DNA of 64,000 bases, taken from the NCBI RefSeq assembly GCF_002283365.1, contig NZ_MQWD01000001.1, positions 2,592,771 to 2,656,770 of the forward strand, written 5' to 3'. Position numbers and translations under genes: made by a program. The notes beneath the pieces were generated by a model that made no database searches, was not told the DNA's origin, and saw only the letters and a program-made list of their open reading frames with translations. How positions within the stretch are numbered: the first letter of the stretch is position 1; every line of letters begins with the position of its first letter. Positions 827-37,475 of this stretch are shown here, one piece after another. Source of the DNA: Rubrivirga marina. Its GTDB lineage: Bacteria; Bacteroidota; Rhodothermia; Rhodothermales; Rubricoccaceae.

Positions 827-3109
827 ATGATCCAGGCCTCCGCCGACCTCCACCGCCAGCTCGACGGCCTCGTCGTCGCGCCCGACTACGAGCGCCGCCT
901 CCGCGTGCTCTTGGAGCACTGCCAGCGGAATCTCCCCTCGGTCGACGAGGCCATGATCCGCCGCGCCTTCCGCGTGGCCTACTGGGCCCACCGCGACGAC
1001 CGCCGCGCCTCCGGTGAGCTCTACATCTCGCACCCCCTGGAGGTCGCGCTCATCGCGGCCAAGGACATCCGGATGGACGACGTGACCGTGGCGGCGGCGC
1101 TCCTCCACGACACGGTCGAGGACACGGACCTGTCGCTCGACCTCCTGGAGAGCGAGTTCGGCACCGAGGTCGCGCGGATCACCGATGGCGTGACCAAGAT
1201 CGGGAGCGTGTTCGAGAACCGGGCGCTCGGCCGGGCCGAGAACGTCCGGAAGCTCATGCTCTCGATGGCGTCGGACGTCCGCGTCATCCTGGTCAAGTTC
1301 GCCGACCGGCTCCACAACATGCGGACGCTCGTGGCGATGCCGACCGAGAAGCAGCTCCGCATCGCGGCCGAGACCGCGGACCTGTTCGCGCCGCTGGCGC
1401 ACCGGTTCGGGCTCCACGAGGTCAAGACGGAGCTCGAAGACCTCTCGCTGAAGTACCTCCAGCCCGAGGCCTACCGCGAGATCGCCGACGGGCTCAACGC
1501 CAAGCGCCGCCAGCGCGAGCGGTTCATCGAGCGGTTCATCGAGCCGCTCCGCGAGGAGCTGAAGGAAGCCGGGTTCGCCTTCGACATCTACGGCCGGCCG
1601 AAAAGCATCACGTCGATCTACAGCAAGATGAAGCGGCAGGGCGTCGGCCTCGACGAGGTCTACGACCTGTTCGCGATCCGCGTGATCCTTCACACGACGG
1701 GCAAGCAGGGCCGCGAGGACTGTTGGCGCGTCTACTCGACCGTCACGGCCAACTACCCCCCGGTCGACGGGCGGCACCGCGACTTCATCTCCAAGCCCAA
1801 GTCGAACGGGTACCAGAGCCTCCACGCGACGGTCATGACGCCGGAGGGCCGGCCGGTCGAGGTCCAGATCCGGACGCAGGAGATGCACGAGGTCGCCGAG
1901 CGCGGCGTCGCGGCCCACTGGAAGTACAAGGAGACGCCGGGAGGCGACGGCGCGGCCCCGGCCGGCGCCGGTGATGCCCGCGTGGACGAGCTCTACGCGT
2001 GGGTCCGCGACCTCCTCGAAAACCCCTCGCCCGACGACGCCGGCGAGTTCGTCCGCCAGTTCCAGCTCAACCTCTACGACGAGGAGATCTACGTCTTCAC
2101 GCCGGCCGGCGAGCTGGTCACGCTCCCGACCGGCGCCACGCCCGTCGACTTCGCCTTCCAGATCCACTCCGAGGTCGGGTTCCACTGCATCGGGGCGAAG
2201 GCCGATGGGAAGATGGTCCCGCTCAGCTACCGGCTCCAGTCGGGCGAGCAGGTCGAGATCCTGACGTCGAAGCGCCAGACGCCCAACCCCGACTGGGCCA
2301 CGTTCGTCGTCACCCACAAGGCGCAGGCGCGGATCCGCCACTGGATCAACGAGCGTCGGCGGAAGACGTCGGCGCACGGCCGGGACCTGCTAGACAAGAA
2401 GCTCGCCCGCGCCCACCTCGAGCCCGACGAGCAGGCCATCAACCGCCTCGCCGCCGACCTCAAGTTCGCCTCGACCCAGCAGCTGTTCTACGAGATCGGC
2501 TCCGGCAAGTACGACCCGGCCGACTTCGTGGCGGCGCTCAAGAAGGGCCTCCCCCCGGAGGCGCCCGAGTCGGACGTCCCCGAGGGCGTCTCGCCCGCCC
2601 TCCTGGAGGTCGACGAGATCGACTTCCGCGAGGACGCCCGCGAGCGCGTCGGCGGCCGGACGGCCCTCGTCATCGAGGGCGAGCGCCACACCGACCTCGC
2701 CGTCGAGTACGCTGCGTGCTGCGGTCCCATCCCCGGCGACGACGTGTTCGGGTTTCTCTCGCGGACCGGCGTCGTCAAGATCCACCGGAAGGGGTGCAAG
2801 AACGCGAACCACCTGTTCTCGGACCACGGCGAGCGCGTGATCCCGGTCGAGTGGAGCCGCCAAAAGGACGTCCAGTTCTCGGCCACGCTCCGCGTCGTCG
2901 GCGAGGACCGCGTCGGGATCGTGAGCGACATGACGGCCGTGATCTCGAAGAGCCTCAAGACCAACATCCGCTCGATCACCGTGACGTCCGAGGACGGGAT
3001 GTTCGAGGGGACCATCGTGCTCTACGTCAGCGACGTGAAGCAACTCCGGCGGATCATGAAGCGGCTGGGGCGGCTCGATGGGATCTACGGCGTGTACCGC
3101 GAGGAGTAG
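827..3109 (+). CDS. spoT: Bifunctional (p)ppGpp synthetase/hydrolase, RelA/SpoT family
   Basis: The 760-residue product has the full long-RSH order: HD hydrolase, synthetase, TGS, and a C-terminal ACT domain. The hydrolase HD pair is at residues 94-95 (LLHDTVEDT), so it should degrade (p)ppGpp. The synthetase part contains KSNGYQSLHATV and EVQIRTQEMHEVAERG. The RHRD motif at 316-319 matches the RxKD type of bifunctional Rel/SpoT rather than the ExDD type of RelA, so both activities are expected. The TGS domain begins near EEIYVFTPAGELVTLP, and the ACT domain (GEDRVGIVSDMTAVI) occupies the last ~75 residues. ATG 827 was chosen over an in-frame GTG at 707 because the upstream 40 residues are not family-like and a promoter element lies between them. 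No second synthetase is seen in the window. Confidence 0.96.
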   Translation: MIQASADLHRQLDGLVVAPDYERRLRVLLEHCQRNLPSVDEAMIRRAFRVAYWAHRDDRRASGELYISHPLEVALIAAKDIRMDDVTVAAALLHDTVEDTDLSLDLLESEFGTEVARITDGVTKIGSVFENRALGRAENVRKLMLSMASDVRVILVKFADRLHNMRTLVAMPTEKQLRIAAETADLFAPLAHRFGLHEVKTELEDLSLKYLQPEAYREIADGLNAKRRQRERFIERFIEPLREELKEAGFAFDIYGRPKSITSIYSKMKRQGVGLDEVYDLFAIRVILHTTGKQGREDCWRVYSTVTANYPPVDGRHRDFISKPKSNGYQSLHATVMTPEGRPVEVQIRTQEMHEVAERGVAAHWKYKETPGGDGAAPAGAGDARVDELYAWVRDLLENPSPDDAGEFVRQFQLNLYDEEIYVFTPAGELVTLPTGATPVDFAFQIHSEVGFHCIGAKADGKMVPLSYRLQSGEQVEILTSKRQTPNPDWATFVVTHKAQARIRHWINERRRKTSAHGRDLLDKKLARAHLEPDEQAINRLAADLKFASTQQLFYEIGSGKYDPADFVAALKKGLPPEAPESDVPEGVSPALLEVDEIDFREDARERVGGRTALVIEGERHTDLAVEYAACCGPIPGDDVFGFLSRTGVVKIHRKGCKNANHLFSDHGERVIPVEWSRQKDVQFSATLRVVGEDRVGIVSDMTAVISKSLKTNIRSITVTSEDGMFEGTIVLYVSDVKQLRRIMKRLGRLDGIYGVYREE

Positions 3110-3212
3110 GGGAATCCTTGGGTCTCGCGGTGGTATGTGCGTTATCGGCGCCTGGGGCGCTGGGGGAGGGGTGAAACTTTGACTCTGACCCGACGCAGTT
3201 CGTTGATCGGCG

Positions 3213-6808: not shown

Positions 6809-6856
6809 CACTCGGGCGCGTCGGGCGTTCACCCCTCCCGTCGCCCCGTCGCCCCG

Positions 6857-17355: not shown

Positions 17356-18216
17356 ATGGCCGCCCCGAACGACGCCCCCAAGCCGACCGCCCCGCGCGGC
17401 GTGTCGCAGGTCACCAACTTCATCGCCGTCGCCTCGGGGAAGGGCGGGGTGGGGAAGAGCACCGTCGCCGCCAACCTCGCCGCCGCGCTCGCCGCGTCCG
17501 GCGCGAAGGTGGGCCTGCTCGACGCCGACGTGTACGGGCCGAGCGTGCCGCTCATGTTCGGCGTCCCCGCGGACGAAAAGCCGCGGCTCAACGACGAGCG
17601 CCACATCGTCCCGCTCGTCCGCTACGGCGTCAAGCTCCTCTCGATGGGCTTCCTCGTCGACGACTCGAACGCCGTGATCTGGCGCGGGCCGATGGTGTCG
17701 AGCGCCGTGCGCCAGTTCCTCGGGCAGGCCGCGTGGGGCGAGCTCGACCACCTCATCATCGACCTGCCGCCGGGCACGGGCGACATCCAGCTCACGCTCG
17801 TCCAAACCGTTCCGCTGACGGGCGCCGTCGTCGTGTCCACGCCGCAACCGGTCGCTCTCGCCGACGCCCGGAAGGCCGTCAAGATGTTCGAGAACGTCCA
17901 CGTTCCGGTCCTCGGCGTGGTCGAGAACATGGCATACTTCACGCCGCCGGACCTCCCGGACCGGAAGTACTACCTCTTCGGCGAGGCCGGCGCTCAGAAG
18001 CTGGCGGCGGAACTCGACGTGCCGGTCCTGGGCGAGGTCCCGATCGAGCAGGCGGCCCGCGAGGCCGGAGACAACGGGACGCCCGTCGTCCTCGCCGAGC
18101 CCGAGAGCGCGACGGCGCAGGCCTTTCGCCAGATGGCCGAGCGCGTCGTCACGGAGGTCGAGCGCCGCAACGCCGACGCGCCGCCGACGCAGCCCATTGA
18201 GATTCTGTACAAGTAG
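17356..18216 (+). CDS. Mrp/NBP35-family Fe-S cluster carrier ATPase
   Basis: The 286-residue P-loop protein carries the deviant Walker A ASGKGGVGKSTVAANLA, LLDADVYGPSVPLMFG (switch I) and IIDLPPGTGDIQLTL (Walker B region), all diagnostic of Mrp/ApbC. The usual CxxC that holds the bridging cluster is absent; MAYFTPPDLPDRKYYLFG is found there, as is common in Bacteroidota homologues. The N-terminal DUF59 domain of longer forms is also missing. It probably helps deliver Fe-S clusters. The NifU-type scaffold gene follows 95 nt later. Confidence 0.92.
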   Translation: MAAPNDAPKPTAPRGVSQVTNFIAVASGKGGVGKSTVAANLAAALAASGAKVGLLDADVYGPSVPLMFGVPADEKPRLNDERHIVPLVRYGVKLLSMGFLVDDSNAVIWRGPMVSSAVRQFLGQAAWGELDHLIIDLPPGTGDIQLTLVQTVPLTGAVVVSTPQPVALADARKAVKMFENVHVPVLGVVENMAYFTPPDLPDRKYYLFGEAGAQKLAAELDVPVLGEVPIEQAAREAGDNGTPVVLAEPESATAQAFRQMAERVVTEVERRNADAPPTQPIEILYK

Positions 18217-29273: not shown

Positions 29274-29354
29274 GGGGCGAGGGGCGGCGTCTGGAAAGTT
29301 CCGGACGTCTTCGGCACGGCGCCCTGGCGGCTCCGGCGGGCGCCTGGCATCTTG

Positions 29355-29410
29355 CTCCTCCGCTCCTCCGCTCCTCCGCTCCTCCGCTCCTCCGCTCCTC
29401 CGCTCCTCCG
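29355..29410 (+). repeat. Tandem repeat: seven perfect copies of CTCCTCCG before the aminotransferase gene
   Basis: Seven identical 8-bp units end two bases before GTG 29413. They occupy the position of the leader and proximal promoter. No interruption or mismatch is present, as expected for a repeat that still slips. Each unit contains CCTCC, the same as the 16S rRNA anti-Shine-Dalgarno sequence. Confidence 0.97.
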
Positions 29411-29412
29411 CT

Positions 29413-30561
29413 GTGACCCTCGACGCCTACCGCGACCTGTTCGACGTCTCCGCGGACGGCGCGTACCTCGACCACGCGGCGACGGGCGTGCTCGGGCGGC
29501 ACGTCACGGACGCCGTCGGCGACTACCTCGAGGGACGGGCGGGGCGCATCGACGGGCGGTCGCCGAACAACTTCCCGGCCGACCTCGACCGGATCGAGCG
29601 AGCGCGCCGGCGGGCCGCGGACCTGGTCGGCGTGCCGGTCGAGTGGGTCGCGATGGTCCCGAACACCTCGTACGGGCTGAACCTCCTCGTCCAAGGGCTC
29701 GACTGGATGCCGGGCGATCGGGTGGCCGTCCCCGGGTGCGAGTTCCCCGCCAACCTGCTCCCGTGGCTCGGCCTGGCCGACCTCGGCGTCGAGGTGGACC
29801 GGGTCGCGCACCGCGACGGCGTGTTCTCGGTCGACGACGTCGCCGCGGCGATCCGGCCCGAGACGCGCGTCGTGGCGGTCTCGGCGGTCCAGTTCCTGTC
29901 CGGCTTTCGGTGCGACCTAGAGGCGATCGCCGCGCTGTGCCGCGACCGCGGCGTGCTGTTGGCCGTCGACGCCATCCAGGCGGTCGGCGCCGTCCGCCTC
30001 GACGCGGGCGCGCTCGGGATCGACCTGCTGGCGACGGGCGGCCACAAGTGGCTCGGGGCGATGCAGGGGGCCGGCTTCGTGGCTGTCGCGCCCGATCTGA
30101 TGGAGCGCCTCCGGCCGATGCGCGGCTGGCTCAACGGGCCCGTCGACTGGGACGACTTCGACGCGATCTCGACCGACCTCCACCCGGACGCGACCCGCTT
30201 CCACGTCGGCACGATGCCGACGGCCGGGCTCTACGCGCTCGACGCCGCGCTCGGCGCGATCCTCGGGGTGGGTCCGGACGCCATCGAACGGGCCGCGCTC
30301 GCCAACGCGGCCCGCCTCGGGGACGGGTTGGAGCGTCTCGGGTACGACCGAGTCGGGCCGCAGGGGGAGCCGAGGTCCGGCATCGTCACCGTCCGCGCCG
30401 ACGACCCCGAGGGGCTCCATGCCCACCTCGTCGAGCGCGGTGTGACCTGCTCGTTGCGGAGCCGGCTCGTTCGGTTCGCCGCCCACGCCCAGACGCGTCC
30501 CGAGGCGGTCGACCTCGCGCTCGACGCCGTCGCTTCCTTCAGCCGCCCCGTCGCTGCATGA
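29413..30561 (+). CDS. Class V aminotransferase-fold PLP enzyme (cysteine desulfurase/epimerase-like)
   Basis: The 382-residue protein has the class V fold: YLDHAATGVLGRHV at the start, the PLP-binding LAVDAIQAVGAVRLD with conserved Asp, and the Schiff-base Lys in ATGGHKWLGAMQGAG. The C-terminal part lacks the Cys-bearing loop of NifS/SufS desulfurases, so it is closer to the isopenicillin N epimerase-like branch. The true substrate is unknown. The GTG start lies two bases after an eight-base tandem repeat. The stop overlaps the rluD start (ATGA), so both are probably expressed together. Confidence 0.87.
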   Translation: MTLDAYRDLFDVSADGAYLDHAATGVLGRHVTDAVGDYLEGRAGRIDGRSPNNFPADLDRIERARRRAADLVGVPVEWVAMVPNTSYGLNLLVQGLDWMPGDRVAVPGCEFPANLLPWLGLADLGVEVDRVAHRDGVFSVDDVAAAIRPETRVVAVSAVQFLSGFRCDLEAIAALCRDRGVLLAVDAIQAVGAVRLDAGALGIDLLATGGHKWLGAMQGAGFVAVAPDLMERLRPMRGWLNGPVDWDDFDAISTDLHPDATRFHVGTMPTAGLYALDAALGAILGVGPDAIERAALANAARLGDGLERLGYDRVGPQGEPRSGIVTVRADDPEGLHAHLVERGVTCSLRSRLVRFAAHAQTRPEAVDLALDAVASFSRPVAA

Positions 30562-31634
30562 GCCAGGAGCCCGACAAGATCGAGACGATCATCGAACTCG
30601 ACGTCCCGCCGGGCCAGTCGCCCGTTCGGCTCGACGTCTACATCACCGACAAGACGGCGAACGCGACGCGCTCGAAGGTCCAGCGCGGCATCAAGGACGG
30701 CAACGTCGACGTCAACGGCGAGACGGTCACGAAGGTCTCGACCCCGGTCCAGCCCGGCGACCACATCGTGTGCCGCGTGATGCGTCCGCCCCCGATCGAA
30801 GTCGTCCCGGAGGACATTCCGCTCGACGTCGTCTACGAGGACGACACGCTCCTCGTGGTCAACAAGCCGGCCGGGATGGTCGTCCACCCGGCCTACGGGC
30901 ACCGCTCGGGGACGCTCATCAACGCGCTCCTCCACCACGTCGGCGCCGGCCCGCTCGCGGCCGACGACGTCGAGGACTCCGACGACGACGACGTCGGGCT
31001 GGCGACGGCGACGGCCGGGCCGCGCTTCGACGGGGACCCGACGATTCGGCCGGGCCTCGTCCACCGGCTCGACAAGGACACGACGGGGCTGATGGTGGTC
31101 GCCAAGACGGACATCGCCGCCGCCCATCTGGGTCAGCAGTTCGCCGAGCGGACGATCGAGCGGCGCTACCTCGCCCTCGTCTGGGGGGGGCTCGACGGCC
31201 CCGGCCGGGTCGAGGGCTGGCTCGGGCGGAGCCCCCGCGACCGGAAGAAGATGTCGGTGCGCCCGGAGGGGGAGGGGAAGTGGGCCGCCACGACCTACGA
31301 GCCTGTCGAGTCGTTTGCCCACACGGCCCTCGTGCGCTTCAAACTCGAGACCGGACGGACGCACCAGATCCGCGTCCACGCGGCCTCCGTCGGGCACCCC
31401 GTCTTCGGCGACACGACCTACGGCGGGGACCGGATCGTCTACGGATCGGCCGAGGGGTCACGGAAGGCGTTCGTCCGGAACCTCTTCTCCCGCCTCGGTC
31501 CCCGGCAGGCTCTTCATGCGGCGACGTTGGGGTTCGTCCACCCCGACACGGGAGACGTGCATTCATTCGAGGCGCCCCTCCCCGACGACATGGCTTGGGT
31601 GGTCGGTCGTCTTCGGGGGGTCGAGCCCGGCTGA
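30558..31634 (+). CDS. rluD: 23S rRNA pseudouridine synthase, RluD-like
   Basis: The 358-residue enzyme has an N-terminal S4 RNA-binding domain (RLDVYITDKTANATRSKVQRGIKDGNVDVNG region) and a catalytic RluA/RluD-type domain. The catalytic Asp is in the invariant GLVHRLDKDTTGLMVVAK. VVNKPAGMVVHPAYG, ERRYLALVWG and TGRTHQIRVHAASVGHPVFGD are further family motifs. RluD converts uridines in helix 69 of 23S rRNA. The Lys-Asn-rich insertion usual at residues ~135-150 is replaced by an acidic stretch. A run of eight G bases (31183-31190) lies in the coding sequence. It overlaps the aminotransferase gene by ATGA, placing it downstream of the eight-base repeat. Confidence 0.92.
   Translation: MSQEPDKIETIIELDVPPGQSPVRLDVYITDKTANATRSKVQRGIKDGNVDVNGETVTKVSTPVQPGDHIVCRVMRPPPIEVVPEDIPLDVVYEDDTLLVVNKPAGMVVHPAYGHRSGTLINALLHHVGAGPLAADDVEDSDDDDVGLATATAGPRFDGDPTIRPGLVHRLDKDTTGLMVVAKTDIAAAHLGQQFAERTIERRYLALVWGGLDGPGRVEGWLGRSPRDRKKMSVRPEGEGKWAATTYEPVESFAHTALVRFKLETGRTHQIRVHAASVGHPVFGDTTYGGDRIVYGSAEGSRKAFVRNLFSRLGPRQALHAATLGFVHPDTGDVHSFEAPLPDDMAWVVGRLRGVEPG
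31183..31190 (+). repeat. Homopolymeric G8 tract inside rluD
   Basis: Eight consecutive G bases encode Trp-Gly-Gly in the middle of the catalytic domain. Confidence 0.85.
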
Positions 31635-31653
31635 TCGGGCAGGGGGGCGTGAT

Positions 31654-31676
31654 CCCGCCCGTCGCCGGGCGGCGGG
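31654..31676 (+). terminator. Possible hairpin after rluD
   Basis: CCGCCCG (31655-31661) pairs with CGGGCGG (31666-31672) across a TCGC loop, 20 nt after the rluD stop. No U-tract follows, so this is a weak call. Confidence 0.35.
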
Positions 31677-31697
31677 ACCCCGGATGCGGGGTGCTGG

Positions 31698-31705
31698 TAC
31701 CTACC
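31698..31705 (+). promoter_or_regulatory. Weak candidate -7 element (TACCTACC) for the PtsN-like gene
   Basis: TACCTACC lies 27 nt before ATG 31725. The match is partial but the spacing is the preferred one. Confidence 0.3.
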
Positions 31706-31724
31706 GGCGCCCCGCATCATCCGC

Positions 31725-32198
31725 ATGACTGACATCCCTCGGCTCGCCGACCTCCTCGCTCCCGACCGTGTGGCGGTCCGCGTGTCGGTGGCGACGCGGG
31801 AAGAGGCCGTGGACATCGCCGTCGGCCTGCTCGCCGACTGTCCCTCCGTCGTCGACCCCGCCCGCCTGGCGGCCGACGTGGAGGGCCGGGAGGCGCTCAT
31901 GTCGACCGGAGTAGGGGAGGGTCTGGCCCTTCCGCACGCCCGGACGTCGGCCGTGACGTCGACCGTCGCCACGCTCTGCACGCTCGCGGTCCCGGTGGAT
32001 TGGGACGCGCACGACGGCGCGCCCGTCGACCTCGTCCTCCTCTTCGCGGGGCCCGAGGCGGCGCGGGCGACGCACGTCCGTCTGCTGGCGCATCTGTCGC
32101 GCGTGTTGAGCGCGGCCAAGGTCCGCCATCGCATCGCCGAGGCGGAGACCCCGGAGGCGCTGGTGGCCGCCGTCGTGGAGGCCGAGGCGAACGTGTAG
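31725..32198 (+). CDS. PTS EIIA-type (PtsN-like) regulatory protein
   Basis: The 157-residue single-domain protein has the fructose/mannitol EIIA fold. GREALMSTGVGEGLALPHARTS contains the phospho-acceptor His in the invariant PHA motif. VDLVLLFAGPEAARATHVRLLAHLSRVL is the second conserved block. There is no permease domain, so it belongs to the PtsN class that regulates rather than transports. No EI or HPr gene is seen in the window. It precedes hisS. Confidence 0.88.
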   Translation: MTDIPRLADLLAPDRVAVRVSVATREEAVDIAVGLLADCPSVVDPARLAADVEGREALMSTGVGEGLALPHARTSAVTSTVATLCTLAVPVDWDAHDGAPVDLVLLFAGPEAARATHVRLLAHLSRVLSAAKVRHRIAEAETPEALVAAVVEAEANV

Positions 32199-32282
32199 GC
32201 CCGTCGGGTCGGATTTCGCAGAGTGCGCGTGTCGACGCGCGCGGTCCCGCCGGACCTTCCGGTCCCATCTGCCCGCCTCCGC

Positions 32283-33578
32283 ATGGCTTATCAGACGATC
32301 CGCGGCACGTTCGACGTCCTCCCCGACGCTCACAGCTCGGGCGGCTCCGAGATCCCCGGCTCGTCCGCGTGGCGCCACGTCGAGGGCGTGGTCCGCGGCG
32401 TGATGGAGCGGTTCGCGTTCGAGGAGGTCCGGACGCCCGTAATCGAGCCGCTCGAGCTCGTCGCGCGCGGCGTCGGCGGGACGACGGACATCGTGCAGAA
32501 GGAGATGTTTACGGTCGAGCGGACGAAGGAGACGTACGTCCTCCGCCCCGAAGTCACGGCGCCGGTCATGCGGGCGTACCTCCAGCACCACCTCGACCAG
32601 CGCGGCGGGGCCCAGCGGCTGTACTACCTCGGGCCGTGCTTCCGCGCCGAGCGTCCGCAGAAGGGTCGGTTCCGCCAGTTCCACCAGTTCGGGACCGAGC
32701 TCCTCGGTTCCGACGACCCGCGCGCGGACGCCGAGGTCATCGCCAACATGCGGGCGGTCTACGACGCGTTCGGGGTCACGAATACGCGGCTCCGCCTCAA
32801 CACCCTCGGCGACGCCGCCGACCGCCCGGCCTACCGCGACGCCCTCCGCCAGTACTTCGAGCCCCACGCCGACGTCCTCTCGGACACGTCCCGCCAGCGG
32901 CTGGAGACGAACCCGCTCCGGATCCTCGACACGAAGGATCCCGATGAGCGCGCGCTTCTCGCTGACGCACCCAAGCTCCCGGACTTCGTAGGCGACGAAG
33001 CTCTCGCCCACTACGAGACGGTCAAGACGCTCCTCGACGGCCTCGGCGTCCCGTACGTCGAGGACCCCCTGCTCGTCCGCGGCCTCGACTACTACACGCG
33101 GACTGTGTTCGAGCTGGAGTCCGACGCGCTCGGCGCCCAGGGCGCGTTGTGCGCAGGGGGGCGCTACGACGGGCTCGCGCAGGCCGTGGGGAGCAAGCGT
33201 CCGGTGCCGGCGGTCGGCTACGCAGCCGGGATCGAGCGGCTGTTCATTGCCCTCGAGGACGAGGGCTACGCGTTCCCCGCGCCGCCGCGGCCCGACGTCT
33301 TCCTCGTCTGCCTCGGTGACGCCGCCGAGGCGGCCGGGTTCGGGATCGCCCAGACGCTCCGCCAGGCCGGCCTCGCCGTCGACTTCGCGCTCGGCGGCCG
33401 CTCGATGAAGGCCCAGATGAAGGCCGCCGACCGCTCGCAGGCGGGCTACTCTGTCATCCTCGGGGAGGACGAGCTCGCGCAGGGCGTGGCCCAGGTCCGC
33501 GACCTCGGCGAGAGCGAGCAGCGGGCCGTCCCCATCGGCCGGCTGGCGGTCGAGCTCGTCCGCGAGACGGCGGCGTAA
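32283..33578 (+). CDS. hisS: Histidyl-tRNA synthetase
   Basis: The 431-residue class II synthetase charges tRNA-His. It has IRGTFDVLPD at the start, motif 2 as YYLGPCFRAERPQKGRFRQFHQFG, the His-specific LVRGLDYYTRTVFE, and motif 3 within VGYAAGIERLFIALE. A C-terminal anticodon-binding alpha/beta domain follows (DVFLVCLGDAAEAAGFGIAQ ... SMKAQMKAADRSQAGYSVILG). ATG 32283 gives the usual start. It follows the PtsN-like gene and precedes lgt. Confidence 0.96.
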   Translation: MAYQTIRGTFDVLPDAHSSGGSEIPGSSAWRHVEGVVRGVMERFAFEEVRTPVIEPLELVARGVGGTTDIVQKEMFTVERTKETYVLRPEVTAPVMRAYLQHHLDQRGGAQRLYYLGPCFRAERPQKGRFRQFHQFGTELLGSDDPRADAEVIANMRAVYDAFGVTNTRLRLNTLGDAADRPAYRDALRQYFEPHADVLSDTSRQRLETNPLRILDTKDPDERALLADAPKLPDFVGDEALAHYETVKTLLDGLGVPYVEDPLLVRGLDYYTRTVFELESDALGAQGALCAGGRYDGLAQAVGSKRPVPAVGYAAGIERLFIALEDEGYAFPAPPRPDVFLVCLGDAAEAAGFGIAQTLRQAGLAVDFALGGRSMKAQMKAADRSQAGYSVILGEDELAQGVAQVRDLGESEQRAVPIGRLAVELVRETAA

Positions 33579-33611
33579 CCCGTTCGCACCCCGGGGCGTC
33601 TCGGCGTCCGC

Positions 33612-33619
33612 TAGCTTCC
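33612..33619 (+). promoter_or_regulatory. Candidate -7 element (TAGCTTCC) for lgt
   Basis: TAGCTTCC lies 27 nt before ATG 33639, just after hisS. Confidence 0.5.
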
Positions 33620-33638
33620 CGCGACTCTCCTCCGCCCG

Positions 33639-34616
33639 ATGTACCCCCGGATCAGCGACCTCACGCGCGACCTCTTCGGCTTCGAACTGCCGGTCCCGCT
33701 CTACTCGTTCGGCCTCATGGTGGCCGTCGCCATCCTCGTCGCGACGGCCATGACCCGGATCGAGGTCGACCGCCGGTACGCGCTCGGGTGGATGTCGGCC
33801 GTCCGCGCGAAGGTGAAGGACGCGAAGGGGCGCGAGAAGGTGGCGCTCACGAGCCCGTCGGCGCTCTTGTGGAACATGGCGCTGATGGCCGGCTTCTTCG
33901 GCGTCGTCGGCGCCAAGCTGTTCCACATCATCGACTACTGGGACGAGTTCACGGCCGACCCGCTCGGGATGATCTTTTCCGGGTCCGGGCTGACGGTCTA
34001 CGGCGGCATCCTGCTCGGCTCCGTCGTCATTCTGTGGTACGCCAAGAAGAAGGGCGTCAGCCGCGCCCACCTCGCCGACGCCGCGGCGCCAGGCCTGCTG
34101 TTCGCCTACGGCATCGGGCGGATCGGGTGCTACCTCTCCGGCGACGGTGACTGGGGCGTGTGCTCGCAGCTCGAGGACAAGCCCGGCTGGATTCCGTCGT
34201 GGCTGTGGAGCGAGACGTTTCCGCGCAACATGCTCGGGCAGATGGACCCCGTCGTGTACAACGCCACGCAGCGGGGGGCCGAGTGCACGCTCGCCAGCCC
34301 CGACGGCGTGTATCCGACGATGCTCTACGAGTTCGCGATGGCGGCCGTGCTCGCCGGCGTCCTCTGGATGCTGCGCAAGAACCCGTTCCAGGCCGGCTGG
34401 CTGATCTCGCTCTACCTCGTGTTCGCGGGCCTCGAGCGGTTCCTGATTGAGTTCATCCGCGTCAACCCGGAGGCCGCGTTCGGGATGCCACAGTCGCAGC
34501 TGATCTCCATCGGCTTCGTTCTGGCCGGGCTCGTCGGCCTCGCCCTCACGACGCGGCGGCGGACCGACGACACGACGCCCGACGCCGAACCGGCCGCGGC
34601 GACCGCCACGGCATGA
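33639..34616 (+). CDS. lgt: Phosphatidylglycerol--prolipoprotein diacylglyceryl transferase
   Basis: The 325-residue inner-membrane protein has seven predicted helices and attaches diacylglycerol to the Cys of prolipoproteins. Family motifs include PVPLYSFGLMVAVAILVA near the start, GLTVYGGILLG, the signature GRIGCYLSGDGDWG with the essential Arg and Gly, and DGVYPTMLYEFAMA. Two periplasmic inserts make it somewhat longer than the E. coli enzyme. Several lipoproteins in this window would be its substrates. Its stop overlaps the start of the thioredoxin-like gene (ATGA). Confidence 0.95.
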   Translation: MYPRISDLTRDLFGFELPVPLYSFGLMVAVAILVATAMTRIEVDRRYALGWMSAVRAKVKDAKGREKVALTSPSALLWNMALMAGFFGVVGAKLFHIIDYWDEFTADPLGMIFSGSGLTVYGGILLGSVVILWYAKKKGVSRAHLADAAAPGLLFAYGIGRIGCYLSGDGDWGVCSQLEDKPGWIPSWLWSETFPRNMLGQMDPVVYNATQRGAECTLASPDGVYPTMLYEFAMAAVLAGVLWMLRKNPFQAGWLISLYLVFAGLERFLIEFIRVNPEAAFGMPQSQLISIGFVLAGLVGLALTTRRRTDDTTPDAEPAAATATA

Positions 34617-35182
34617 GGCGCGCGGCCCTCGCCGTCGCGCTCGTGGCCTGCGGCGCTTCCGCCCAGCCGCCTCGGGTCACGTCCGTCGACGTGGCTTCGG
34701 CCACCTCGGGCGACGACTCGACCGAGGTGGAGCGAGTCGCCATGCCGGCCTTCGCGTTCCCGTCGCTCGCCGACCCGGCGGTGGTCTACACCCCGGACCG
34801 CTTCGCGGGTCGGTTCGTGCTCATCGACTTCTGGGCCTCGTGGTGTGTGCCGTGCCACGCTGAGATCCCGCGCATCGCGGCGGTCCACGAGGCGTTCGGC
34901 GACCGGCTCGACGTCCTCAGCGTCTCGCTGGACCTGTACCCGGACGACGCCGAGGCCTTCCGCCAGCGCGTCGCGCCGATGCCGTGGCTCCACGGCTTCG
35001 TGGGCGAGGAGTTCGACCACCCGTCCGTGGCGGCCTTCGGCGTCGACCGGCTCCCGGCCGCCGTCCTCCTCGGCCCCGACGGAACGATCCGCGCGCGCGG
35101 CGGGGCGCTCCGACGCGACCTCCTCTGGCCGACCATCGAACGTGAGCTCGGCCAGGAGCGACCCGACGCCGATGCACCCTGA
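34613..35182 (+). CDS. TlpA/ResA-like exported thioredoxin-fold protein
   Basis: The 189-residue product has a short signal (AALAVALVACGASAQ). The thioredoxin-like domain carries the redox motif WCVPC in LIDFWASWCVPCHAEIPRI and the cis-Pro loop RLPAAVLLGPDG. TlpA/ResA proteins reduce disulfides in the envelope, for example during cytochrome c maturation. It overlaps lgt at its start and the PLP decarboxylase gene at its end, so the three are probably one transcription unit. Confidence 0.9.
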   Translation: MRRAALAVALVACGASAQPPRVTSVDVASATSGDDSTEVERVAMPAFAFPSLADPAVVYTPDRFAGRFVLIDFWASWCVPCHAEIPRIAAVHEAFGDRLDVLSVSLDLYPDDAEAFRQRVAPMPWLHGFVGEEFDHPSVAAFGVDRLPAAVLLGPDGTIRARGGALRRDLLWPTIERELGQERPDADAP

Positions 35183-36575
35183 CCCGCTCGACCTGATCCG
35201 CCAGGGTTACGCCGCGCTCGACGCGTGGGAGGCCGGCTTCGGTGCGGTCGAGGCCCACCCCAGCCTCGGCGTCGACGCGGACCGTCTCGGCGCGGCCGTC
35301 GAGGAGTACCTCGGGAGATTGACGGCGCCGCCGCGCGGGGAGACGCCGGGGATGTACCCGTTCGGTCACCCGCGCTACGCCGGGCAGATGCTGAAGCCGC
35401 CGCACCCGGTCGCGCTCGCGGCCTATGCCATCGCGGCCCGCATCAACCCGAACAACCACGCCCTCGACGGCGGCCCGCCGACGAGCGAGATGGAGAAGGA
35501 GGTCGTCGCCGGCCTCGCGGCGATGTTCGGGTTCGCGTCCCCGCTCGGGCACCTCACGGGTGGGGGGACGGTCGCGAACCTCGAAGCGCTGTTCATCGCG
35601 CGGGAGGAGACGGGCGGAAAGGCCGTCGCCGTGAGCCGCGAGGGCCACTTCACGCACGCCCGAATGGCCGGTGTCCTGGACGTCGACTGCGCCGTCGTGG
35701 CCTCCGACGACGCGGGCCGGATGGACCTCGACGCGCTCGAAGATGTGCTCCGAAGAGGGGACGTCGGCACGGTCGTGCTGACGGCGGCCACGACCGGCCT
35801 CGGCGCCGTCGACCCGATCGCGGAGGCCATCCCGTTGTGCCGGCGCTACGGCGCCCGCGTCCACGTCGACGCCGCGTACGGCGGGTTCTTTCGGCTGCTG
35901 GCAGACGCCGCCGACGCGCCCGTCGGCTTCCCGGCCGAGCACTTCCGCGCGATCGCCGAGGCGGACTCGGTCGTGGTCGACCCGCACAAGCACGGGCTCC
36001 AGCCGTACGGCTGCGGCGCCGTCCTCTTCGCCGACCCGGCCGTCGGGCGGCACTACCGCCACGACTCGCCTTACACCTACTTCACCTCGACCGACCTCCA
36101 CCTCGGGGAGATCAGCCTGGAGTGCTCGCGCCCCGGGGCCGCCGCCGGCGCGCTCTGGCTCACGTTAAAGGCCCTTCCGCTGGCGTCGGACGACGGGCTC
36201 GGCCCGATCCTCGCCGCCGGCCTCCGCGCTGCCCGCGCCTTCTACGGAGAAGTCCGGGCCTCGGAGCACCTCGCGCCGATCCTCGCCCCGGAGACCGACA
36301 TCGTCGTCTACGCACCCGAGGCGGACACCCTCGACCGGCTCGACGCCCGATCCGCCGCCGTCTTTCAGCAGGCGATGGACGATCCCGACGATCCCGTCTT
36401 CGTCGGCCTCTACCGCCTCGGCGCCGACCGTCTTCGCCGTCGGTTCCCGGCCCTCGGCGGCGACGCGCCGGCCGCGCGCGTGCTCCGGAGCGTCCTCATG
36501 AAGCCCGAGCACGAGGCCTGGGCGACGCGTCTCGTCGCCCGCCTCGACGGGCTCGCGGGCCCCCTCGGCGGCTGA
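35172..36575 (+). CDS. Group II pyridoxal-dependent decarboxylase family protein
   Basis: The 467-residue protein has the group II decarboxylase fold. Recognisable parts are GHLTGGGTVANLEALFIAR (phosphate and PLP binding), HVDAAYGGFFRLL with the PLP-binding Asp, and the Schiff-base Lys in VVVDPHKHGLQPYGCGAVLF. The usual HxW after Lys is replaced by HGLQPYGCG, so it is not a standard glutamate or aromatic decarboxylase. The substrate is unknown; aspartate or a related amino acid is possible. ATG 35172 lies 10 nt inside the preceding gene. Confidence 0.85.
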   Translation: MHPDPLDLIRQGYAALDAWEAGFGAVEAHPSLGVDADRLGAAVEEYLGRLTAPPRGETPGMYPFGHPRYAGQMLKPPHPVALAAYAIAARINPNNHALDGGPPTSEMEKEVVAGLAAMFGFASPLGHLTGGGTVANLEALFIAREETGGKAVAVSREGHFTHARMAGVLDVDCAVVASDDAGRMDLDALEDVLRRGDVGTVVLTAATTGLGAVDPIAEAIPLCRRYGARVHVDAAYGGFFRLLADAADAPVGFPAEHFRAIAEADSVVVDPHKHGLQPYGCGAVLFADPAVGRHYRHDSPYTYFTSTDLHLGEISLECSRPGAAAGALWLTLKALPLASDDGLGPILAAGLRAARAFYGEVRASEHLAPILAPETDIVVYAPEADTLDRLDARSAAVFQQAMDDPDDPVFVGLYRLGADRLRRRFPALGGDAPAARVLRSVLMKPEHEAWATRLVARLDGLAGPLGG

Positions 36576-36646
36576 CGGCGGGCCGACAATTGCCCGGGAA
36601 TGCGTCCGCGGCGGGTTGCGGGGAGGCCGCCCAGCCGGGACTTTGC

Positions 36647-36694
36647 GATCACCCGATCACCCGATCACCCGATCACCCGATCACCCGATCACCC
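36647..36694 (+). repeat. Tandem repeat: six perfect copies of GATCACCC before rlmB
   Basis: Six identical 8-bp units end one base before ATG 36696, and the GAT of a would-be seventh unit forms part of the start codon region (GATGG). Every unit holds a GATC site. An in-frame ATG at 36600 runs through the array, so a start there would be frameshifted by any change of copy number. Confidence 0.97.
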
Positions 36695-36695
36695 G

Positions 36696-37475
36696 ATGGC
36701 CCACTCCGACTCCCGCACCGACGTCCTCGCCGGCCGGCACCCCGTCCGCGACGCGCTCGACCTCGCCGACGGCCGGATCGAGAAGGTGTACCTCCAGAAG
36801 GGCGTCCACGGGAGCGCCATCGACGGGATCCGTCGCGCGGCGAAGGCGGCCGGCGTGCCGGTCCAGATGGTGCCCAAGCCGAAAGTCGACGGCCTCGCGC
36901 CCCAGGCCGAGCACCAGGGCGTCGTGGCCGTCGTCGCGCCCGTCGCCTACGCCGACCTCGACGACATGCTGGCCGGCATCGCGCCGACGCTCGACGTGGT
37001 CCGCGAGACCAAGCCCGTCCTGATCGCGCTCGATGAGGTCGAGGACCCTCGCAACTTCGGGGCGATCCTTCGGAGCGCCGTCGCCGCCGGCACCGCCGGC
37101 GCTGTGGTGCCCGAGCGGCGGATGGCCCCGCTTTCGGCCGTCGCCATCAAGGCGAGCGCCGGGACGGCCCTCCAGATCCCCGTCGCCCGCGTGGCGAACC
37201 TCGTCGACGCGATCCAGCAGCTCAAGGAGCGCGGCTACTGGGTCGTCGGTCTGGCCGACGACGCGGAGGGCGACAAGGCCACGACCGTCTGGACGTACGA
37301 CTGGGACCGGCCCGTCGTGATCGTGGTGGGGAACGAGGGGAGCGGGCTCCGTCCCGGCGTCCGTGCGGCGTGCGACGCCCTCGCGTCGATCCCGATGCGC
37401 GGGCCGGTCGAGTCGCTCAACGCGAGCGTCGCCGCCGGGATCGCCCTGTTCGCGGCCGTCAAGGACCGGGACTGA
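36696..37475 (+). CDS. rlmB: 23S rRNA (guanosine-2'-O-)-methyltransferase RlmB-like (TrmH/SpoU family)
   Basis: The 259-residue protein has the N-terminal substrate-binding domain (LAGRHPVRDALDLADGRIEKVY) and the SPOUT knot domain. The three SpoU motifs are present: LDEVEDPRNFGAILRSA, VVIVVGNEGSGLRP and IPMRGPVESLNASVAAGI. The order and length fit RlmB, which methylates the ribose of G2251 in 23S rRNA; a related TrmH-family target cannot be ruled out. ATG 36696 follows an eight-base tandem repeat directly. It ends at a convergent junction with a palindrome. Confidence 0.92.
   Translation: MAHSDSRTDVLAGRHPVRDALDLADGRIEKVYLQKGVHGSAIDGIRRAAKAAGVPVQMVPKPKVDGLAPQAEHQGVVAVVAPVAYADLDDMLAGIAPTLDVVRETKPVLIALDEVEDPRNFGAILRSAVAAGTAGAVVPERRMAPLSAVAIKASAGTALQIPVARVANLVDAIQQLKERGYWVVGLADDAEGDKATTVWTYDWDRPVVIVVGNEGSGLRPGVRAACDALASIPMRGPVESLNASVAAGIALFAAVKDRD

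What the first reader, a model, noticed from the sequence alone, without database searches (positions are those of the whole stretch)
29355..36696. Perfect 8-bp tandem repeats abut the starts of two units that both encode 23S rRNA-modifying enzymes
Seven copies of CTCCTCCG end two bases before GTG 29413 (aminotransferase, then rluD by ATGA overlap). Six copies of GATCACCC end one base before ATG 36696 (rlmB). The unit sequences differ, so the arrays arose independently, yet both have 8-bp units, both are mismatch-free, and both sit in the leader or promoter position. Perfect short repeats of this kind expand and contract by strand slippage. Both downstream units carry a 23S rRNA modifier (pseudouridylation in helix 69; 2'-O-methylation of G2251). 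I infer a possible switch of ribosome modification state within a population. The repeats could alternatively be neutral.
Basis: partly seen in the sequence, partly recalled or inferred. Interest (0 to 1): 0.85.

Follow-up and report, generated by a model that had tools for sequence, protein, structure and literature searches.

The report
Repeat-filled gene leaders, genome-wide class
Two genes in this bacterium start right after a perfect run of an 8-letter repeat that fills the stretch between a predicted promoter and the start codon; the same layout, usually with other repeat letters, stands before many unrelated genes in its genus, so it likely tunes gene output in general rather than switching ribosome modification.

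Summary
In detail: (CTCCTCCG)x7 at 29355-29410 and (GATCACCC)x6 at 36647-36694 are perfect, beyond chance, and abut GTG 29413 and ATG 36696. The reading is mostly wrong: the arrays belong to a genome-wide class. An open scan of 2.33 Mb from three species of the genus found 13 perfect 7-9 bp arrays of at least 4.5 copies. Eleven end within 3 nt of a start codon, one reaches it through interrupted copies, one runs off a contig. Most begin at a -7-like promoter end; units are C-rich on the mRNA strand, almost always with one G. The genes are mixed: holB, coaD, tsaD, aroK, queC, thyA, mscL, an amidase and others. Units at orthologous leaders differ: rlmB has GATCACCC here, a 9-bp unit in one sister species, no array in two others. 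The aminotransferase-rluD leader has an array only here (one sister unreadable). Two arrays in one 64-kb window are expected in about 0.6 windows per genome. Best explanation: slippage-expanded, nearly unstructured 5' leaders whose length would tune expression, as published for H. influenzae hmw1A. Neutral turnover is a close rival. Copy-number variation and effects on expression were not testable.

The parts
29346..29353 (+). predicted -7-like promoter end GGCATCTT, directly before array 1
   Evidence: sequence; 22 of 28 catalogued arrays match a post hoc 5-base motif of this kind at the promoter-side edge, against 2% in windows 12-60 bp further upstream
29354..29412 (+). array 1, perfect 8-bp repeat (CTCCTCCG)x7.4, filling the predicted leader
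29413..30561 (+). class-V aminotransferase / cysteine-desulfurase-like protein, GTG start
   Evidence: Pfam PF00266 1.3e-42; orthologues
30558..31634 (+). RluA-family pseudouridine synthase, RluD-like, overlapping the previous gene by ATGA
   Evidence: TIGR00005 above cut-off, RluD equivalog below cut-off; Pfam PF00849 and PF01479
36637..36645 (+). promoter-like GGGACTTTG directly before array 2 (weak: not a hit of the -7 motif)
   Evidence: sequence; one of the 6 misses of 28
36646..36697 (+). array 2, perfect 8-bp repeat (GATCACCC)x6.5, running into the start codon
36696..37475 (+). rlmB, 23S rRNA (guanosine-2251-2'-O)-methyltransferase
   Evidence: TIGR00186 202.2 bits against cut-off 160.15; matches in 9 of 9 family genomes
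6837..6856 (+). short array of the same layout, (CCCGTCGC)x2.5, ending at ATG 6857 of an AmiA-like amidase gene

Best explanation
Each array is a perfect 7-9 bp tandem repeat that fills the stretch between a predicted -7 promoter element and the start codon, one of a genome-wide class of likely slippage-expanded 5' leaders whose length would tune expression of the gene behind it. Shown: position, strand, C-rich and G-poor unit, perfect periodicity, different units at orthologous leaders, mixed downstream genes, low predicted RNA structure. Inferred: transcription starts at or just inside the array, so the leader RNA is almost all repeat. Inferred: translation here is of the Bacteroidetes kind, with no Shine-Dalgarno pairing and a need for an unstructured leader, which at about 72% G+C means C-rich and G-poor. 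Inferred: copies are gained and lost in steps of 7-9 nt by slippage, moving the leader between about 24 nt (ordinary) and 33-137 nt (arrays seen) and shifting output by degrees, not on and off; frame does not matter because the array lies before the start codon.
For: Open scan of 1.526 Mb of G000, 0.4 Mb of G008 and 0.4 Mb of G006: 13 perfect arrays of period 7-9 and at least 4.5 copies (5, 7 and 1). Of the 12 with the gene side on the contig, 11 end within 3 nt of a start codon; the tsaD array continues through two interrupted stretches up to its TTG. With pattern and orthologue finds the list is 31 arrays: 24 abut a start codon within 8 nt (tsaD counted with its interrupted copies), 3 lie further from the likely start, 2 abut a stop codon, 2 are cut by contig ends. 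The promoter-side motif is at the edge in 22 of 28, and in the two arrays found later (by eye). The 22 start-abutting arrays measured have C 0.59 (lowest 0.42), G 0.14 and folding energy -0.06 kcal/mol per nt, against -0.12 for 9 array-free orthologous leaders and -0.38 for 200 random 60-nt window pieces. Array-free leaders found by motif: median 24 nt, n 34, some false. Recurrence with different units in two species: rlmB, yceH/DUF480, shikimate kinase, and a metalloenzyme gene beside tsaD. Precedent: hmw1A heptamer repeats overlap the -10 box of P2, lie in its 5' UTR, and more copies lower expression (PMC8262952, abstract and one section read). Bacteroidetes lack Shine-Dalgarno sequences and use unstructured 5' UTRs (PMC3155529, abstract read).
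Against: No copy-number variation within a species, no transcript and no expression data were available. Two arrays abut stop codons instead of starts (L363, L369), which a leader function does not explain. Of 20 orthologous leaders of seven array genes read in the genus only 2 also carry an array, so whatever the array does is dispensable. The abutment on both sides may follow simply from the leader being short. The motif was defined after seeing the data, and 6 of 28 arrays miss it, the window's rlmB among them. Units are reused within G006 and G008, which slippage at each leader alone does not predict.
Confidence: 0.5

Rival explanations
1. Neutral: short C-rich leaders between promoter and start codon are one of the few places where slippage products are tolerated, and the arrays come and go without effect on fitness.
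For: Different units at orthologous leaders, and no array in 18 of 20 orthologous leaders; mixed gene functions; periods of 7-9 bp fit the abundance of heptamer repeats in bacteria noted in PMC4692102 (sections read).
Against: Intergenic DNA upstream of promoters should tolerate arrays as well, yet 26 of 31 abut an ORF boundary and most start at a -7-like motif. Unit composition is tight: exactly one G in 26 of 28 units. Arrays recur at four orthologous genes with different units.
Confidence: 0.35
2. G-quadruplex or other DNA structure on the G-rich template strand controls transcription, as considered for GGGNATC repeats of Xanthomonas and Nostoc.
For: The G-rich strand is the non-coding strand in the arrays before start codons and the coding strand in the two after stop codons, the geometry reported in PMC4692102. 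Array 2 has six GGG tracts.
Against: Array 1 has no GGG tract, nor do the amidase, TerB-like and G006 yceH arrays; 3 of the 13 arrays of the open scan lack GGG. The CCC patterns would bias a larger count. The authors of PMC4692102 found no role in gene regulation.
Confidence: 0.08
3. A dedicated switch of ribosome modification state through rluD and rlmB.
For: Both units carry a likely 23S rRNA modifier; tsaD, truA and queC are also array-led.
Against: The class is genome-wide and functionally mixed; the pairing is seen in one species only; two arrays in one window are within chance.
Confidence: 0.04
4. The arrays are parts of a species-specific intergenic repeat (a palindrome followed by an array) that spreads within a genome.
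For: The same unit recurs at several places in one genome: CCCGAAC at five listed places in G008, CCCGGAA at five in G005, CCCGTAC at five in G004, TCCCGCTC at four in G008. Short inverted repeats are visible upstream of several arrays in G006 and G008 (by eye).
Against: In G000 the nine catalogued arrays have nine different units; flanks were not aligned or tested for a shared element.
Confidence: 0.03

Closest known systems
Heptanucleotide repeats of hmw1A in nontypeable Haemophilus influenzae (PMC8262952)
   Same: short tandem array starting at the promoter's -10 box and lying in the 5' UTR; copy number outside the reading frame
   Different: an adhesin locus with one unit and a demonstrated dose effect; here many housekeeping genes, many units, no expression data
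GGGAATC / GGGGA(C/T)T repeats of Xanthomonas and Nostoc (PMC4692102)
   Same: genome-wide 7-bp class, mixed gene functions, G-rich on the non-coding strand close upstream of ORFs and on the coding strand close to stops, length and sequence variation between sister species
   Different: one consensus unit per lineage with a preference for four copies; here many units, about 5-20 copies, periods 7-9, tight fit between promoter motif and start codon
TAACTGA repeats of Beggiatoaceae, Cyanobacteria and some Bacteroidetes (PMC4679880)
   Same: heptamer arrays in Maribeggiatoa mostly ending a few nt before start codons, no functional theme, role in translation suggested by the author
   Different: a single unit, 2-6 copies per set in Maribeggiatoa; here the unit differs between most genes

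Membership tests
Contingency loci with promoter/5' UTR repeats (hmw1A type) | perfect short tandem repeat in promoter or 5' UTR | tested here: met
   promoter predicted by motif only
Contingency loci with promoter/5' UTR repeats (hmw1A type) | copy number varies within a species or population | not testable with these tools
   no second isolate or reads of the window's species at hand
Contingency loci with promoter/5' UTR repeats (hmw1A type) | copy number changes expression | not testable with these tools
   needs reporters or RNA and protein data
Contingency loci with promoter/5' UTR repeats (hmw1A type) | surface or host-interaction genes | tested here: not met
   downstream genes are mainly housekeeping enzymes
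GGGNATC quadruplex repeats (Xanthomonas/Nostoc) | one consensus G-rich unit with GGG tracts | tested here: not met
   23 distinct units among 28 entries; array 1 has no GGG
GGGNATC quadruplex repeats (Xanthomonas/Nostoc) | G-rich strand is non-coding upstream, coding downstream | tested here: met
   24 arrays at starts and 2 at stops
TAACTGA repeats | TAACTGA unit | tested here: not met
   units listed
TAACTGA repeats | array ends within a few nt of the start codon | tested here: met
   11 of 12 within 3 nt in the open scan, the twelfth through interrupted copies
Ribosome-modification switch | arrays specific to rRNA-modification units and kept in relatives | tested here: not met

The most novel reading that the evidence does not exclude
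A promoter-coupled process makes new 7-9 bp arrays exactly at transcription start regions, each from local leader sequence and nearly always with one G per unit, giving this genus a genome-wide set of evolvable volume knobs that re-form on the same housekeeping genes in different species, with RNA-modification genes over-represented.
Probability: 0.15. Interest if true: 0.8.

Novelty: new variant of a known kind. Interest (0 to 1): 0.5.

Why it matters
If the arrays tune expression, core genes such as tsaD, holB, coaD and thyA, some of them essential in well-studied bacteria (recalled), would be under repeat-length control, which is usually described for surface genes (recalled; also argued in PMC4692102). 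The changing units and the tight fit between promoter and start codon make a natural series for asking how leader length and composition set translation in bacteria that do not use Shine-Dalgarno pairing, and whether new arrays arise preferentially at transcription starts.

Tried and rejected
A link to 23S rRNA modification was tested by asking which genes in the genus carry arrays and was rejected as the main reading. A shared unit between the two window arrays was rejected. An excess of two-copy duplications of 7-12 bp in array-free leaders was looked for and not seen (0 of 21 leaders for each period), but the set is small. A first leader finder was dominated by coding false positives and was dropped (563 candidates). 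A quadruplex requirement was rejected because arrays without GGG exist. A resemblance of GATCACC and CTCC to the 16S rRNA 3' end was noticed from memory and not pursued. A survey of 60 genomes of the order with one pattern matched 9, of which 5 are among the 6 family genomes drawn, but the reversed control pattern also matched 9 of 60, so it says little about distribution outside the family. Of 19 rlmB upstream regions read, only L166, which is G008's own contig, shows an array. The scan of all 80 loci (1.14 Mb) found no other array at rlmB; it found a few elsewhere (L176, L209, L231, L245) that were not placed against genes. In the search loci of other genera of the family, arrays at L053 (G004) and L064 (G002) were not found next to a start codon that I could name. 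Other paper searches; listings only, apart from the four papers cited.
Full report
Check of the observation. Array 1 is (CTCCTCCG)x7 at 29355-29410 with the period running on to 29412, next to GTG 29413. Array 2 is (GATCACCC)x6 at 36647-36694 with the period running on into ATG 36696. Forty Markov versions of the window gave no array of 3.5 or more copies. Orthologues agree with both start codons. The first gene behind array 1 is a class-V aminotransferase, and the pseudouridine synthase behind it is RluA-family, RluD-like but under the RluD cut-off.

The class. I scanned 1,526,059 bases of the own genome (about 31%, window included), 400,000 of G008 and 400,000 of G006, both of the same genus, for any perfect tandem repeat. 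Part of the G008 and G006 samples was chosen around their rlmB. Thirteen arrays have period 7-9 and at least 4.5 copies: five in G000, seven in G008, one in G006. Twelve have the gene side on the contig. Of these, 11 end within 3 nt of a start codon of an open frame; the tsaD array of G008 is perfect for 11.7 copies and goes on through two interrupted stretches to the base before its TTG. The thirteenth begins a contig. Shorter arrays with the same layout occur too, for example three 7-bp copies abutting the start of a GlgE-like gene (L146) and 2.5 copies before ATG 6857 of the window, an AmiA-like gene. Repeats of other periods (mostly 6, 12, 15 and 21 bp) were also found and not classified.

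Pattern searches over the four genus genomes for CCC with period 8 and 7 (the second list was cut for G008) added more, of which I read those for which DNA was at hand. Loci fetched for orthologues added the yceH array of G006 and two more. The list is 31 arrays, counting the two contig ends C8 and C1 of G008, which carry the same unit with the gene side on one and the promoter side on the other, as one. Twenty-four abut a start codon within 8 nt. Three (DUF4230, EttA, UbiA) lie 33 to about 98 nt before the likely start, and their assignment is uncertain. Two abut stop codons, of a CNNM/CorC-type gene (L363) and of a transporter permease gene (L369). Two are cut by contig ends. G007 gave mostly poly-C runs in these patterns, likely assembly artefacts. 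One search lists at least seven further G008 arrays that I did not read.

Anatomy. At the promoter side, 22 of 28 arrays show a -7-like motif at the very edge, such as GGCACCTT, GGCATCTT or GTCAGATT, against 2% in windows 12-60 bp further up; the motif was defined after seeing the data, and the six misses include the window's rlmB array. Array-free leaders found by a longer form of this motif have a median of 24 nt and C 0.46, G 0.29 (34 leaders, some false). In 22 start-abutting arrays the mRNA strand averages C 0.59 and G 0.14, and lengths run from 33 to 137 nt. Of 28 unit entries (23 distinct after rotation), 26 have exactly one G, two have two, none has zero; in the 13 arrays of the open scan it is 12. 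Predicted folding is weak: -0.06 kcal/mol per nt against -0.38 for random window pieces, lengths not matched.

Turnover and recurrence. In the genus, rlmB has GATCACCC x6.5 in G000, TCCCGCTCG x9 in G008, and no array in G006 and G007. The aminotransferase leader has an array in G000, none in G006 and G008, and cannot be read in G007. The yceH leader (DUF480; the name yceH is recalled) has arrays of different units in G000 and G006, none in G007 and G008; the tsaD, holB, coaD and amidase leaders, array-led in one species, have none in the other three. That is 2 of 20 orthologous leaders, against 0.4 expected if 2% of leaders had arrays (assumed; P 0.06). Two further genes carry arrays of different units in two species: shikimate kinase in G006 and G008, and a 390-residue metalloenzyme gene beside tsaD, 7-bp unit in G000 and 8-bp unit in G006 (likely orthologous by length, family and place). 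So arrays arise and vanish between sister species, and they come back at some of the same genes.

Genes. Behind arrays stand YjbR, DUF480/YceH, an amidase, LMW-PTP, DUF4230, a D-Tyr-tRNA deacylase, a protein with a weak TerB match (below cut-off), MscL, DUF427, shikimate kinase (twice), TruA, thymidylate synthase, HolB, CoaD, TsaD, QueC, a WbqC-like protein and, less certainly, UbiA and EttA, and the metalloenzyme. The G008 C8/C1 gene has no Pfam match. Three of the first 20 modify RNA. Whether this is an excess depends on the background (P 0.004 at 1.6%, 0.08 at 5%, 0.21 at 8%, backgrounds assumed). The pair in the window needs no special cause: 0.6 windows with two arrays are expected per genome.

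Assembly. Four contig ends of G008 lie inside arrays, three of them with exactly 77 bp of array, a usual k-mer length of a common assembler (recalled); one search lists a fifth (C14). True copy numbers there are unknown, and copy numbers of the longer arrays should be read with care.

Mechanism. The best reading is a slippage-expanded, almost unstructured leader whose length tunes output. It rests on position, composition, recurrence and two published anchors: hmw1A, in which heptamer repeats overlap the -10 box of the main promoter, lie in the 5' UTR and lower expression as they lengthen, whether by transcription or later being unknown (PMC8262952, abstract and one results section read), and the lack of Shine-Dalgarno use with unstructured 5' UTRs in Bacteroidetes (PMC3155529, abstract read). 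That this genome belongs near that group rests on its matches to Rubricoccaceae and Rhodothermales records. The neutral reading is a close rival. The arrays at stop codons, the reuse of units in G006 and G008 and the tight one-G rule are not explained by either.

What is known. Genome-wide heptamer classes next to start codons are in print: TAACTGA repeats (PMC4679880, abstract and two sections read) and GGGNATC-type repeats (PMC4692102, abstract and two sections read), the latter with the same strand rule. What differs here is that the unit changes between most genes while period, strand, composition and borders stay the same.

Noticed in passing
L161 (G000:C1:1550001-1570000) 18130-18150: A 4-bp repeat (CCGA)x5.25 directly after an ATG that follows a GGTACCTT promoter-like motif, upstream of a deoxynucleoside kinase domain; if that ATG is the start, a 4-bp unit inside the frame would shift it, unlike the leader arrays.
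   Followed up: partly
L086 (G002) 3009-3130: In another genus of the family an RluA-family-like frame ends (TGA) inside the first units of a (GAAGGAT)x17.4 array, so an array sits at the 3' end of the gene (gene named by eye).
   Followed up: partly
L121 (G008:C1:400001-420000) 1964-2251: A divergent pair, shikimate kinase and tsaD, each with its own leader array (9-bp x8.3; 7-bp x about 20 with a 28-bp higher-order repeat); in G006 shikimate kinase is divergent to truA, again both with arrays (L368).
   Followed up: partly
L308, L357 and L369 (G006); L110, L121 and L371 (G008): Short inverted repeats (CACCTCGGCGCCGAGGTG-like in G006, GCTGGCGCCAGC-like in G008) stand before several arrays and may be a species-specific intergenic element (by eye).
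   Followed up: no
G007 contigs C92, C222, C327, C419, C656 and others: Long poly-C runs in contigs of G007, likely assembly artefacts; they make pattern counts in that genome unreliable.
   Followed up: no
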